Shown here piece after piece: positions 2,361 to 19,190 of a stretch of 46,997 nucleotides of DNA. The stretch comes from an uncultured Ruminococcus sp. Lineage in GTDB: Bacteria > Bacillota > Clostridia > Oscillospirales > CAG-272. Where the stretch lies: positions 1 to 46,997 of the forward strand of contig CACZZA010000002.1 in NCBI GenBank assembly GCA_902785485.1, given 5' to 3'. Numbering within the stretch: position 1 is the stretch's first letter; each line of letters starts with the position of its first letter. Under the pieces are notes generated by a model. That model was not told the origin of the DNA, did not search any database, and worked only from the letters and a program-made list of their open reading frames with translations. The position numbers and the translations under genes are program-made.

Positions 2361-2404
2361 ACAAAAATGCAGAACGCGGATATGCTGCGCTCTGCAAAAA
2401 ATGA
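2361..2404 (-). terminator. Intrinsic terminator of the glycine riboswitch (expression platform)
   Basis: Arms at 2368-2377 and 2387-2396 pair at nine of ten positions (TGCAGAGCGC with GCGTTCTGCA on the minus strand). An A-run lies before the stem and five U after it. It starts about 30 bases after the second aptamer, the usual place for a glycine-riboswitch expression platform. By family precedent glycine binding would favour read-through, but no antiterminator pairing was worked out. Confidence 0.75.
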
Positions 2405-2430
2405 CGGAAGAAAAGAGGAAAAACAATATG

Positions 2431-2605
2431 AGGTTCTCCGTCCTTTTGCCTGAGAGATTCGTACGTAACGACCCCGTACTTACACCTTCGGCACCCGAAT
2501 TCGGGATTCTCCAGAGCGCTATCCGCTTGCAGTCTTTTCCGGAAAACGGATCCTGAGAGGTTTACTCCTTCGGCACGGGCGTGCGCCCGACTTTCCTGCA
2601 AGTTT
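2431..2605 (-). ncRNA. Tandem glycine riboswitch, orphan
   Basis: Two glycine aptamers are read on the minus strand. The first carries GCCGAAGGAGTAAACC and CTCTCAGG, then a small extra hairpin before AAAAGAC. The second carries CTCTGGAGA, GTGCCGAAGGTGTAA and CTCTCAGGCAAAAGGAC followed by GGAG. The order and linker match the classic cooperative tandem form that senses glycine. It has its own promoter upstream and a terminator downstream. No minus-strand gene lies beyond it: the RNA points at the convergent 3' end of glyS. The symporter gene, the usual partner of such a switch, lies upstream rather than downstream of it. Confidence 0.92.
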
Positions 2606-2629
2606 CATTTAGCATTATTTGTTTTCGTT

Positions 2630-4590: not shown

Positions 4591-4619
4591 TTGACAAAGT
4601 TGTCGAATCTTGTTATAAT
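4591..4619 (+). promoter_or_regulatory. Promoter of the leader peptide-uraA-upp operon
   Basis: Consensus TTGACA (4591-4596) and TATAAT (4614-4619) are separated by 17 bases. Transcription would start near 4626, just before the leader peptide ribosome-binding site. Confidence 0.85.
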
Positions 4620-4656
4620 ACACAGGATGGAAAAACAAGGAAAAGGAGTGCCCGGG

Positions 4657-4746
4657 ATGAAGGACAAGGCTTTGATCGGAATAACGGAAACAAAGCGTAC
4701 CGGGGCGTTTTTTCCTTTCTTTTCCTCATTATCATTATTATATTGA
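4657..4746 (+). CDS. Leader peptide of the uraA-upp attenuator (29 aa)
   Basis: A 29-codon ORF starts at an ATG eight bases after AAGGAG (4643-4648). An in-frame ATG at 4627 would be leaderless and is less likely. The first half reads MKDKALIGITETK; the second half is encoded by an unusually U-rich stretch giving FFPFFSSLSLLY before TGA. The stop lies only four bases before the attenuator hairpin. The likely role is the act of translation: a ribosome that follows RNA polymerase closely to this stop would cover the first arm of the hairpin and block termination. This is inferred by analogy with enteric pyrBI and pyrE leaders. No homologue of the peptide is recognised, and it could be a chance ORF. 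Confidence 0.6.
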   Translation: MKDKALIGITETKRTGAFFPFFSSLSLLY

Positions 4747-4750
4747 TCTG

Positions 4751-4778
4751 CTGACACGTACGGGTGTCGGTTTTTTTT
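4751..4778 (+). terminator. Attenuator terminator ahead of uraA
   Basis: Arms CTGACAC (4751-4757) and GTGTCGG (4764-4770) surround a short loop (one G-T pair) and are followed by eight T. It stands between the promoter and uraA, so it must be passed for uraA and upp to be expressed. Confidence 0.8.
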
Positions 4779-4852
4779 AAGGTCAGGAACGACGTTCAGC
4801 GGCATAAGACCCCGCTTAATGAATAATAATTTCAATCGTTCGGAGGTACTAT

Positions 4853-6418
4853 ATGAAACTCACTTACGGTGTAAAGGACAGACCGACTGCAGGAAAGGTC
4901 GTTCTGTTTGCTATCCAGCAGCTGCTTGCCATCCTTGCGGCGACTATCGCCGTCCCCGCCATCATAGGCAACGGTATGTCTCAGTCCGCGGCGCTTTTCG
5001 GAGCAGGCGCGGGAACCATAATCTACCTGTTGTTCACTAAATTCAAGAGCCCCGTTTTCCTCGGCTCGTCGTTTGCGTTCATCAGTTCGATGTTTGCGGC
5101 TTTTGCCGGAGCGGGCTCATTCGCAGCGCTCGGATACCTCGGTTTAATACTCGGCGCGGTATTTGCGGGACTTGTTTACGTCGTTATCGCTTTCATCGTC
5201 AAGCTTGCGGGTGTTAAGTGGATCAACAAGCTCATGCCCGCGGTCGTCATCGGACCCACCGTCGCGATAATCGGTCTTTCTCTCGCCGGAAACGCGGTGG
5301 GCGATCTCCAGACCGCAAACTACGTCAAGACCTACAATACCGAAGACTACGCGATAGTCGAAGTCGCTGAAAACGTAAAATATGACGGTGAAGCGGGTAC
5401 ATTCACCTACAACGTGTCTGAGAACGGAGATATGAGTCAAATAGTCGTTCTTGAAAAAGACGCCGACGTTTCGGCTCCCGTTCCCGCCGACAAGATCCAT
5501 TCCGAGATCACCGCGTCTAAAAACGAAGACGGGACCTATACGCTCACTCAGGTCACGGGCTCCAAGTACATCGCGCTGATATGCGGACTCATCACCCTCG
5601 CCGTAACGATACTCGTTTCGGTCTACTCCAAAAAGACCCTCAAAACGATCCCGTTCATCATCGGCATCCTCGCCGGATACGCAACGGCGGCTTGCTTTAC
5701 TCTCATCGGCAGCCTGACCGGAAACGACGCTTTGATGATAATCGACTTCTCGAAGTTCTCCAATATGCAGTGGCTCCCCGATTTCGCGTTCCTCAAGGCG
5801 TTCAGCGGTGAGGGCATCGGCAATCTCAACGGCGCTTTCATAGGCACCGTGGCGGTCGCCTACATTCCCGTTGCGTTCGTCGTTTTCGCGGAGCATATCG
5901 CGGACCACAAGAACATTTCTTCGATCCTTTCCAACGAAAACGAAAAAGTCGACCTGCTTGAAGATCCCGGTCTCTCCCGCACCCTGCTCGGAGACGGCGT
6001 AGGCTCTATGGTCGGCGCTTTCTTCGGCGGCTGCCCGAACACCACTTACGGCGAGTCGATCGGATGCGTAGCGATCTCCGGCAACGCCTCGATCGTCACT
6101 ATACTCTGCACGGCGATCCTCGCTATGGCGGCGTCTTTCGTAGCTCCCTTTGTGACCTTCCTTTCCACCATCCCGTCGTGCGTCATGGGCGGCGTCTGCA
6201 TAGCGCTCTACGGCTTCATCGCGGTCTCCGGTCTCAAGATGGTACAGAAGGTCGACCTTGACGACAACAGAAATCTGTTCGTGGTATCGGTCATCCTCAT
6301 CACCGGTATCGGCGGACTTGCCGTCAGCTTCGGAAAGATCACCATCACCTCTATCGCCTGCGCGCTCATCCTCGGCATCCTCACCAACCTGATGCTCTCG
6401 AGAAAGAAAGAAAACTGA
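4853..6418 (+). CDS. uraA: Uracil permease, NCS2 family
   Basis: Proton-coupled uracil uptake across the cytoplasmic membrane. The 521-residue protein starts with the NCS2 helix pattern ([18 protein letters not shown]), has GSSFAFI near residue 64 (helix 3 half-strand region), [14 protein letters not shown] near 345 with the conserved Glu-His, and [19 protein letters not shown] near 390 with the substrate-binding Glu. It is about 90 residues longer than E. coli UraA because of a hydrophilic insert of roughly residues 155-235, predicted by topology to lie outside the cell. GGAGG precedes the ATG. upp follows after 40 bases, making a transport-salvage pair. Uracil fits better than xanthine because of upp. 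Confidence 0.93.
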
Positions 6419-6458: not shown

Positions 6459-7106
6459 ATGGATATGGATATCGATATGAGTAAAGTAACGGTGTTCGAC
6501 CACCCGCTGATCCAGCATAAGGTGTCGATCCTCCGCAGTGTTGACACAAGCTCCAATCAGTTCAGACAGCTCGTCGAAGAGATAACGATGCTGATGTGCT
6601 TCGAGAGTATGCGCGACCTTCCCCTTATGGATACGGAGGTCACGACTCCCATGTGCAAGACCACGACCAAAGTCCTCGCGGGCGTCAAGCTCGCGGTGGT
6701 CCCGATCCTTCGCGCGGGTCTCGGAATGGTGGAAGGAGTTCTCCACCTCGTACCCTCGGCAAGAGTCGGACATATCGGTCTTTACAGAGACCACGTCACC
6801 CTTGAGCCTCACGAGTATTACTGCAAGCTCCCGAAGAACATCGAAAACAGGCTCGTCATCGTCACCGACCCGATGCTCGCAACGGGCGGAAGCGCGTGCG
6901 ACGCGATCAAGCTCATCAAGGAGCGCGGAGGCAGGCATATAAAATTTATGTGCATCATCGCGGCTCCCGAAGGACTCAAGGCTCTGACCGAAAAGCATCC
7001 CGACGTAGAGGTATACTGCGCTCACGTTGACGAAAAGCTCAACGAGAACGGCTACATCCTCCCCGGACTCGGCGACGCGGGCGACCGCATCTTCGGCACG
7101 AAATAA
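6459..7106 (+). CDS. upp: Uracil phosphoribosyltransferase
   Basis: Converts imported uracil and PRPP to UMP. The 215-residue protein shows [12 protein letters not shown] at the N-terminus, the [12 protein letters not shown] loop near residue 85, the PRPP-binding [16 protein letters not shown] near 133, and a C-terminal [14 protein letters not shown] that closes over uracil. The chosen ATG follows AGGAAG by seven bases. It adds six residues to the common [10 protein letters not shown] start at 6477, which cannot be excluded. It is cotranscribed with uraA under the same attenuator. Confidence 0.97.
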
Positions 7107-18937: not shown

Positions 18938-19190
18938 GCTTTTGATATGCGTTGAAGCGGGAGGTTGCTGCCGAAAGGCAGGTAATTTCCGTGGAGTATG
19001 TCCGATATTTAACCGGGCGACAGCAAAAATGCTGAAACATCCTTCCGATGGGATCCCCGTCGGACCTACCCGGATTTTGCCGTGAGGCGAATTCCGTTTT
19101 TTGTAGGGCGATGCTGGAAACACACGGTAGGGTGTCAAGGGATTCAACGCCTCTTGAAAAGCGAGTTGCATAATTTATTAAGGAGGCAAA
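18938..19190 (+). ncRNA. Structured S10-operon leader RNA
   Basis: About 255 bases of leader precede rpsJ without a translatable ORF. Several hairpins follow one another: CTGCC-GAAA-GGCAG, CAGCA/TGCTG, TCCGA/TCGGA, and CGGATTTTGCC-GTGA-GGCGAATTCCG. The GTATGTCCGA...ACCGGGCGACAGC core looks like leaders I recall upstream of rpsJ in other Clostridia. It is probably an autogenous site where a ribosomal protein of the operon binds its own mRNA; which protein, and the mechanism, cannot be read. No intrinsic terminator lies between it and rpsJ. Confidence 0.6.

What the first reader, a model, noticed from the sequence alone, without database searches (positions are those of the whole stretch)
4591..4852. 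Probable UTP-sensing leader-peptide attenuator before uraA-upp
Seen: a consensus promoter; a 29-codon ORF with AAGGAG at eight bases; a U/pyrimidine-rich run (4708-4740) coding FFPFFSSLSLLY; a TGA at 4744-4746; a terminator hairpin starting at 4751 with eight U. Known: in enteric pyrBI and in pyrE (behind rph), low UTP makes polymerase pause at U-runs, the ribosome catches up and blocks the terminator. Inferred: the same logic here controls uracil salvage. Firmicutes usually control these genes through PyrR sites, and I see no PyrR-binding pattern. A coupled UTP attenuator in this phylum, on salvage rather than synthesis genes, would be unusual.
Basis: partly seen in the sequence, partly recalled or inferred. 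Interest (0 to 1): 0.78.

Follow-up and report, generated by a model that had tools for sequence, protein, structure and literature searches.

The report
Pyrimidine-run leader attenuator before uraA-upp
In front of the predicted genes for taking up and reusing uracil, this bacterium and at least 15 relatives carry a tiny reading frame that ends at a predicted transcription stop signal, a layout that likely lets scarce UTP switch the genes on in genomes where the usual regulator, PyrR, was not found.

Summary
In detail: a consensus promoter, a 29-codon ORF with a good ribosome site, a G-free 36-nt pyrimidine-rich run, a stop codon 3 nt before a terminator, then uraA-upp with no second promoter found. 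Of 328 distinct uraA upstream sequences, 96 hold pyrR; among the other 232, 16 show the same layout (15 by scan, 1 by inspection), in 7 genera of 5 families. Shuffles give about 1 (15 observed, mean 1.05, maximum 4). All 11 terminators preceded by at least 67% pyrimidine have such an ORF, against 9 of 143 others. Peptides differ between genera; within one genus constraint is mixed. No antiterminator pairing exceeds chance in 16 of 16. No PyrR above 30 bits in 12 of 12 such genomes tested. This fits a pyrBI/pyrE-like, ribosome-coupled attenuator better than PyrR, amino-acid or reiterative control. UTP sensing is inferred. Caution: short stop-to-terminator distances are ordinary here, as expected where transcription outruns translation, so the pyrimidine run would have to create coupling on demand.

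The parts
4591..4619 (+). promoter sequence, TTGACA-17-TATAAT with TG before the -10
   Evidence: 12 of 12 consensus matches
4643..4648 (+). Shine-Dalgarno AAGGAG of the leader ORF, 8 nt before ATG
   Evidence: sequence
4657..4746 (+). leader ORF, 29 codons, MKDKALIGITETKRTGAFFPFFSSLSLLY*
   Evidence: translation; same layout in 15 other genomes; no Pfam match
4708..4743 (+). pyrimidine-rich, G-free run (23 T, 7 C, 6 A), predicted polymerase pause at low UTP
   Evidence: composition; 45 nt before the hairpin 78% pyrimidine against at most 64% in 40 other leaders
4744..4746 (+). stop codon TGA, 3 nt before the hairpin
4750..4778 (+). predicted intrinsic terminator (hairpin 4750-4771, eight T 4771-4778)
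   Evidence: hairpin -11.4 kcal/mol
4628..4728 (+). predicted helix in which the purine-rich ribosome site pairs with the pyrimidine run; strong in this genome, not general
   Evidence: MFE fold; duplex z -3.9 here, -2.0 in G019, not significant in the 6 leaders of genus g24
4842..4846 (+). Shine-Dalgarno GGAGG of uraA
   Evidence: sequence
4853..6418 (+). uraA, predicted uracil permease (521 aa)
   Evidence: PF00860, 1.2e-67
6459..7106 (+). upp, predicted uracil phosphoribosyltransferase
   Evidence: PF14681, 1.8e-78

Best explanation
The leader of the predicted uracil-uptake operon uraA-upp holds a consensus promoter, a 29-codon reading frame that ends in a G-free pyrimidine-rich run, and a stop codon 3 nt before a predicted intrinsic terminator, and it likely works as a UTP-sensing attenuator in which RNA polymerase would slow in that run when UTP is scarce, so that the leader ribosome would catch up and block the terminator. 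Shown: the parts, their order, their recurrence in 16 leaders of 7 genera and 5 families, no PyrR above 30 bits in the 12 of those genomes tested, the difference of the peptides between genera, and no antiterminator pairing above chance. Inferred: translation of the ORF, pausing at low UTP (perhaps low CTP too), and read-through as the outcome. With ample UTP, polymerase would outrun the ribosome, the hairpin would form and transcription would stop before uraA. In this genome the pyrimidine run can also pair with the ribosome site, which may close the leader ORF to late ribosomes and hold the off state; that part is not conserved.
For: Recurrence: 15 ATG-started, SD-bearing ORFs of at least 18 codons ending at the hairpin among 139 terminators, against 1.05 on average (maximum 4 in 200 rounds) in dinucleotide shuffles and 1.45 (maximum 5) in block shuffles; a 16th (G649) was found by inspection. 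Pyrimidine run: 11 of 11 terminators with at least 67% pyrimidine in the preceding 45 nt have the ORF, 9 of 143 below that value do; shuffles give 0.025 with both features. Geometry: ATG 18-31 nt after the predicted start, 21-46 codons, stop end from 6 nt before the hairpin to 14 nt inside it, 16 of 16. An E. coli study reports that terminators within a few bp of a stop codon are repressed by the following ribosome and that amino-acid attenuators keep theirs more than 20 bp away (PMC4824070, passages). Peptides differ between the genera, and among the close species G108, G232 and G261 there are 6-9 nonsynonymous against 0-2 synonymous changes. No antiterminator: p 0.15 to 0.97 in 16 of 16. PyrR: no hit above 30 bits in 12 of 12 tested genomes with the leader, while G152 in genus g24 and G614 and G594 in genus g55 have it at 190 bits or more. 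No promoter found between terminator and uraA here.
Against: No measurement of transcription, translation or UTP response. For this leader alone the geometry is only moderately rare (179 of 2000 block shuffles), and in genus g24 a pyrimidine run after a fixed ATG often reaches the hairpin by chance (664-1458 of 2000). T content before the hairpin is not extreme in g24: 5-15% of 40 other leaders equal it in five of the six g24 leaders; in G019 the T excess at the ORF end is not significant within its own leader (p 0.14). The peptide is not free of constraint everywhere: omega is 0.49 for G195/G319 and 0.31 and 0.22 for G282 against G108 and G261, over short, partly saturated alignments, and the three g100 leaders share MKNWAF. 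Bacillota are classed as uncoupled (PMC13323073, passages) and short stop-to-hairpin distances are usual in this genome. The genome's own pyr operon (pyrC-carB-K-D-F-E-B-I) has a terminator leader without an ORF. G023, G299 and G314 of genus g24 lack both PyrR and this leader and G320 lacks the leader, so the two are not tied one to one. The g100 leaders have the run earlier in the ORF and only 44-58% pyrimidine before the hairpin.
Confidence: 0.6

Rival explanations
1. A general ribosome-versus-polymerase race sensor: the same blocking of the terminator by the leader ribosome, but the signal is translation speed or charged tRNA (Phe, Ser, Leu, Pro codons) and not UTP.
For: The ORF tails are rich in F, S, L and P codons; any change in relative speed would act through this geometry.
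Against: No amino acid is shared in a fixed place by all groups, and the downstream genes are uracil salvage genes. Amino-acid starvation would stall the ribosome short of the hairpin and turn the genes off, which makes little sense for uraA. The shared feature is pyrimidine content.
Confidence: 0.1
2. Translation of the leader ORF is what is regulated: the ribosome site is opened or closed (by the pyrimidine run, a protein or a ligand), and this sets whether the terminator is blocked.
For: In this genome the ribosome site pairs with the pyrimidine run (duplex z -3.9; probability unpaired 0.70 before the run is made, 0.23 after) and weakly so in G019.
Against: The pairing does not exceed chance in the other 6 of 8 leaders tested; no Rfam family matches the leader.
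Confidence: 0.1
3. The ORF is an ordinary small gene with its own terminator, and uraA lives on leaky read-through.
For: Terminators 10-14 nt after stop codons are usual here; the ORF has a strong promoter sequence and ribosome site.
Against: The peptide differs between genera and matches no Pfam family; the layout recurs before uraA in 7 genera; uraA would have no promoter of its own that the scans can see.
Confidence: 0.08
4. PyrR or another RNA-binding regulator acts on this leader, as in relatives.
For: Relatives have pyrR upstream of uraA (96 of 328 regions) or PyrR-like leader RNA (L008, L016, L036, L043, below the curated cut-off).
Against: No PyrR in this genome (94% complete) at E 1e-3 and no PyrR RNA in the leader even at E 5. 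An unknown protein cannot be excluded.
Confidence: 0.06
5. The nascent leader peptide itself arrests the ribosome at the hairpin in response to a pyrimidine compound.
For: Some peptide constraint within g24 (omega 0.22-0.49 for three comparisons) and the shared MKNWAF start in g100.
Against: The peptides differ between genera, and G108, G232 and G261 changed their C-terminal residues freely.
Confidence: 0.06

Closest known systems
pyrBI and pyrE attenuators of enteric bacteria (ribosome-coupled, UTP-sensitive)
   Same: leader ORF, pyrimidine-rich run ahead of an intrinsic terminator, hairpin within reach of the leader ribosome, no antiterminator
   Different: other phylum, in front of the uptake and salvage genes uraA-upp, genomes where PyrR was not found, stop codon at or inside the hairpin (pyrBI's ORF runs on past it, and pyrE uses a full gene, rph: recalled), and no U-run at the predicted transcription start
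PyrR-dependent attenuation of Bacillota
   Same: pyrimidine control by early termination; pyrR or PyrR-like RNA precedes uraA in relatives of this genome
   Different: needs PyrR and its RNA site; neither found here
UTP-dependent reiterative transcription of E. coli upp and codBA
   Same: UTP control of pyrimidine salvage genes (PMC6245113, passages)
   Different: acts at a T-run at the start site; here the first transcribed bases hold none
Amino-acid leader-peptide attenuators, including those proposed in Bacillota (his in bacilli, PMC2965389; leucine in Staphylococcus aureus, PMC5794164; passages)
   Same: short leader ORF and terminator
   Different: use codons of one amino acid and a competing antiterminator, with the terminator more than 20 bp beyond the leader gene in the set of PMC4824070; none of these applies here

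Membership tests
pyrBI/pyrE-type UTP attenuator | promoter-proximal leader ORF with a ribosome site | tested here: met
   16 of 16 leaders, the ribosome site weak in G649
pyrBI/pyrE-type UTP attenuator | intrinsic terminator between the promoter and the structural gene | tested here: met
pyrBI/pyrE-type UTP attenuator | pyrimidine-rich run before the hairpin | tested here: met
   11 of 16 leaders at 67% or more; G609 and G649 at 62-64% and three g100 leaders at 44-58%
pyrBI/pyrE-type UTP attenuator | ribosome at the ORF end would cover the hairpin | tested here: met
   stop end from 6 nt before to 14 nt inside the hairpin in 16 of 16
pyrBI/pyrE-type UTP attenuator | no competing antiterminator | tested here: met
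   0 of 16 with pairing beyond chance; one pairing model only
pyrBI/pyrE-type UTP attenuator | polymerase pauses in the run at low UTP | not testable with these tools
   needs transcription assays
pyrBI/pyrE-type UTP attenuator | read-through depends on translation and rises as UTP falls | not testable with these tools
   needs reporters
PyrR attenuation | pyrR gene in the genome | tested here: not met
   genome 94% complete
PyrR attenuation | PyrR-binding RNA in the leader | tested here: not met
Amino-acid leader-peptide attenuator | run of codons for one amino acid fitting the downstream gene | tested here: not met
   peptides
Amino-acid leader-peptide attenuator | antiterminator alternative to the terminator | tested here: not met
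Reiterative transcription (upp/codBA type) | T-run at the start of transcription | tested here: not met
   ACACAGGATGG follows the -10; start site predicted, not mapped

The most novel reading that the evidence does not exclude
Bacteria of this order have repeatedly swapped PyrR for a UTP sensor made of nothing but a tiny reading frame, a pyrimidine run and a terminator in front of uraA, and it works by creating transcription-translation coupling on demand in a phylum thought to run uncoupled.
Probability: 0.42. Interest if true: 0.85.

Novelty: new variant of a known kind. Interest (0 to 1): 0.72.

Why it matters
Gram-positive bacteria are held to control pyrimidine genes through PyrR (PMC13328217, passages), and Bacillota are classed as transcribing ahead of their ribosomes (PMC13323073, passages). 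A ribosome-coupled UTP attenuator in 7 genera would show how a regulator protein can be replaced by a leader alone, would give a natural test of when coupling occurs in this phylum, and yields a simple signature (ORF stop at hairpin plus pyrimidine run) for finding more. Two genera (g24, g55) hold both solutions in different species, which makes the swap directly testable.

Tried and rejected
Rejected: PyrR control; antiterminator attenuation; amino-acid attenuation; reiterative start; a conserved ribosome-site helix as the core device (strong here, not beyond chance in g24); the idea that the same device controls the genome's pyr operon (no ORF in that leader). Purine content of 39 long ORFs (51.2%) as a hint of coupling: too weak to use, since the set may hold spurious ORFs and replication strand was not considered. 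Short stop-to-hairpin distance as proof of coupling: dropped after and PMC7858274.

Weak spots of my own work. In some searches some minus-strand loci were read in the wrong orientation and one start (G320) was misplaced; G319, G314, G299 and the G261 pyrC region were redone and G320; the pyrC region of G195 and the pyrB upstream regions of minus-strand loci were not redone. The pyr operon leaders I read are those of G000, G108, G232, G261 and G282. Of the order-level hits (138 genomes at E 1e-30) I took 106 upstream regions, 98 after duplicates; G320 is outside the 328. The 328 are distinct sequences, not genomes: some genomes give two and close species remain. PyrR was not tested in G320, G468, G520, G529 and G609. 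Four of the 12 leader genomes (G019, G367, G540, G630) do have weak hits of 20-29 bits, which I read as other phosphoribosyltransferases (the hits counted as PyrR score 123 bits or more); five of the 12 assemblies are under 90% complete. The 12 comparison genomes (10 with PyrR above 190 bits) were picked by hand.

Literature: eight searches of the held open-licence library listed no paper on a leader-ORF UTP attenuator in Bacillota or before uraA; I saw the top 2-25 titles and abstract starts of each, and most subscription papers are not held.

Full report
OBSERVATION. The leader reads as described. From 5' to 3': TTGACA-17-TATAAT (4591-4619), AAGGAG (4643-4648), ATG 4657, 29 codons, a 36-nt run without G (23 T, 7 C, 6 A; 4708-4743), TGA 4744-4746, a hairpin at 4750-4771 followed by eight T, then 73 nt more to uraA (PF00860) and upp (PF14681). 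The consensus scans find no promoter between the terminator and uraA, so the operon would depend on read-through. Within 59 kb of this genome (47-kb window plus 12 kb) and 100 terminator-like sites, this is the only SD-ATG ORF that ends at a hairpin; 8 of the 9 sites with 67% or more pyrimidine before them have none. Rfam lists nothing of note for the leader at E 5.

RELATIVES. The genus holds no second genome, so I compared uraA leaders across the family and order. One search covered 59 relatives (45 with a match), searched 295 family genomes (194 with a match), searched 394 order genomes (138 with a match at 1e-30), and one search gave 80 named loci, mostly metagenome assemblies labelled Ruminococcus, Oscillospiraceae or Clostridia. 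After removing duplicates there are 328 upstream sequences; 96 have pyrR there and 232 were scanned. The orientation of the 80 hand-cut order regions was checked afterwards and is right.

THE LAYOUT RECURS. Sixteen leaders share it. Family f1: G000 (this genome), G019, and six species of genus g24 (G195, G319, G108, G232, G261, G282). Family f17: G367 and G540. Family f20: G649 and G609. Family f23: G630. Family f10: G468, G520 and G529. In all, the ATG lies 18-31 nt after the predicted start, the ORF has 21-46 codons, and it ends between 6 nt before and 14 nt inside the hairpin. G540 is the most striking: MYDCTRSHVTSSCLPISSFSLFPFPLVS*, 91% pyrimidine in the 45 nt before the hairpin, stop 1 nt before it. 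The g100 leaders (G468, G520, G529) share the start MKNWAF and end inside the hairpin. In the g24 loci upp follows uraA; none was seen near uraA of G019.

CHANCE. In one search, 15 of 139 terminators carry such an ORF; shuffling gives 1.05 on average (maximum 4 in 200 rounds), block shuffling 1.45 (maximum 5). G649 is the sixteenth, found by eye because its ribosome site missed the pattern. With at least 67% pyrimidine before the hairpin, 11 are observed and 0.025 expected. In one search, under looser start rules, 11 of 11 such terminators have the ORF, against 9 of 143 others (Fisher 8e-12). Caveats: related species are not independent (7 genera, so perhaps 7 events or fewer), and a pyrimidine run cannot hold a stop codon, so an open frame there is partly automatic. 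One search shows this: for G000, 179 of 2000 block shuffles keep the geometry.

WHAT IS CONSERVED. Not the peptide between genera. Within g24 the picture is mixed: among G108, G232 and G261 there are 6-9 nonsynonymous and 0-2 synonymous changes, but omega is 0.49 for G195 against G319 and 0.31 and 0.22 for G282 against G108 and G261, over short and partly saturated alignments. The pyrimidine content is kept: 69-82% in the eight family leaders against a maximum of 64% in 40 other leaders. No upstream segment pairs with the 5' arm of the hairpin better than chance (16 of 16). The helix between ribosome site and pyrimidine run is strong here (z -3.9) and weak in G019 (-2.0), but not beyond chance in g24.

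PYRR. PyrR is not found in this genome, and no hit above 30 bits appears in 12 of 12 leader-bearing genomes tested; G468, G520, G529 and G609 were not tested, and five of the 12 assemblies are under 90% complete. In the family 88 of 295 genomes have PyrR, so 7 of 7 family genomes lacking it is not strong by itself. More telling are the within-genus contrasts: in g24, G152 has PyrR while six species have the leader; in g55, G614 and G594 have PyrR while G649 has the leader and none. Yet G023, G299 and G314 in g24 have neither, and G320 has no such leader.

MECHANISM. The parts fit a race. With ample UTP, polymerase would pass the run ahead of the ribosome and terminate. With little UTP it would slow in the run, the leader ribosome would close up to the stop codon, and it would cover the hairpin. 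In E. coli a stop codon within a few bp of a terminator lets the ribosome repress it, steeply so for pyrBI, whereas amino-acid attenuators keep more than 20 bp between them (PMC4824070, passages). A point against easy reading: in this genome 5 of 6 genes with a nearby terminator have it within 14 nt of the stop or overlapping it, which is the mark used for uncoupled transcription (PMC7858274, passages), and Bacillota are classed as uncoupled (PMC13323073, passages). So the leader would have to create coupling locally, through the pause.

KNOWN SYSTEMS. It works like pyrBI/pyrE (details of those leaders recalled), and meets the features that sequence can test; the two functional features are untested. 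It fails the tests for PyrR control, amino-acid attenuation and reiterative start. Leader peptides in Firmicutes have been reported for his genes (PMC2965389, passages) and leucine in S. aureus (PMC5794164, passages), so a leader peptide in this phylum is not new, nor is UTP control of upp (PMC6245113, passages). The combination was not in the listings of my eight searches.

VERDICT. New variant of a known kind.

Noticed in passing
L006, L011, L020, L027, L040, L072, L079, L106, L116, L128, L130, L142, L144, L145, L150, L153, L224 (uraA leaders): 17 uraA leaders share an almost invariant element CGGCAG[A/T/G]TGCG near the transcript start; in many a later GCGCTGCCG-like stretch could pair either with it or with a downstream GGCGGCG before a U-run, like an antiterminator/terminator switch. 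No Rfam match there in the six loci scanned; of the 16 family genomes only G028 has PyrR. Candidate unknown pyrimidine-responsive leader RNA.
   Followed up: partly
window 2367-2608 (-): Tandem glycine riboswitch followed by a terminator-like hairpin, with no gene downstream on its strand: it lies behind the predicted Na/Ala symporter gene and points at the 3' end of the predicted glycyl-tRNA synthetase gene. The promoter scan found none there, though a TATAAT precedes it.
   Followed up: partly
L260 3785-3880 (same genome, contig C4): The pyr operon pyrC-carB-pyrK-D-F-E-B-I has a 12-of-12 promoter and a short leader with a terminator but no ORF; how it is controlled is unknown.
   Followed up: partly
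window 4853-6418, residues about 157-234: UraA seems to carry an extra segment of some 70 residues that many relatives lack: their matches split there.
   Followed up: no
G019 (L025): This genome has the leader but gave no ATCase/OTCase-family hit and no dihydroorotase hit, so it may depend wholly on uracil salvage.
   Followed up: no
L356, L359, L360 (genus g100): Three leaders share a conserved start MKNWAF behind a strong ribosome site; the peptide start may matter there, unlike in the other groups.
   Followed up: no
window 18943-19023 (+): S10-Clostridia ribosomal protein leader.
   Followed up: no
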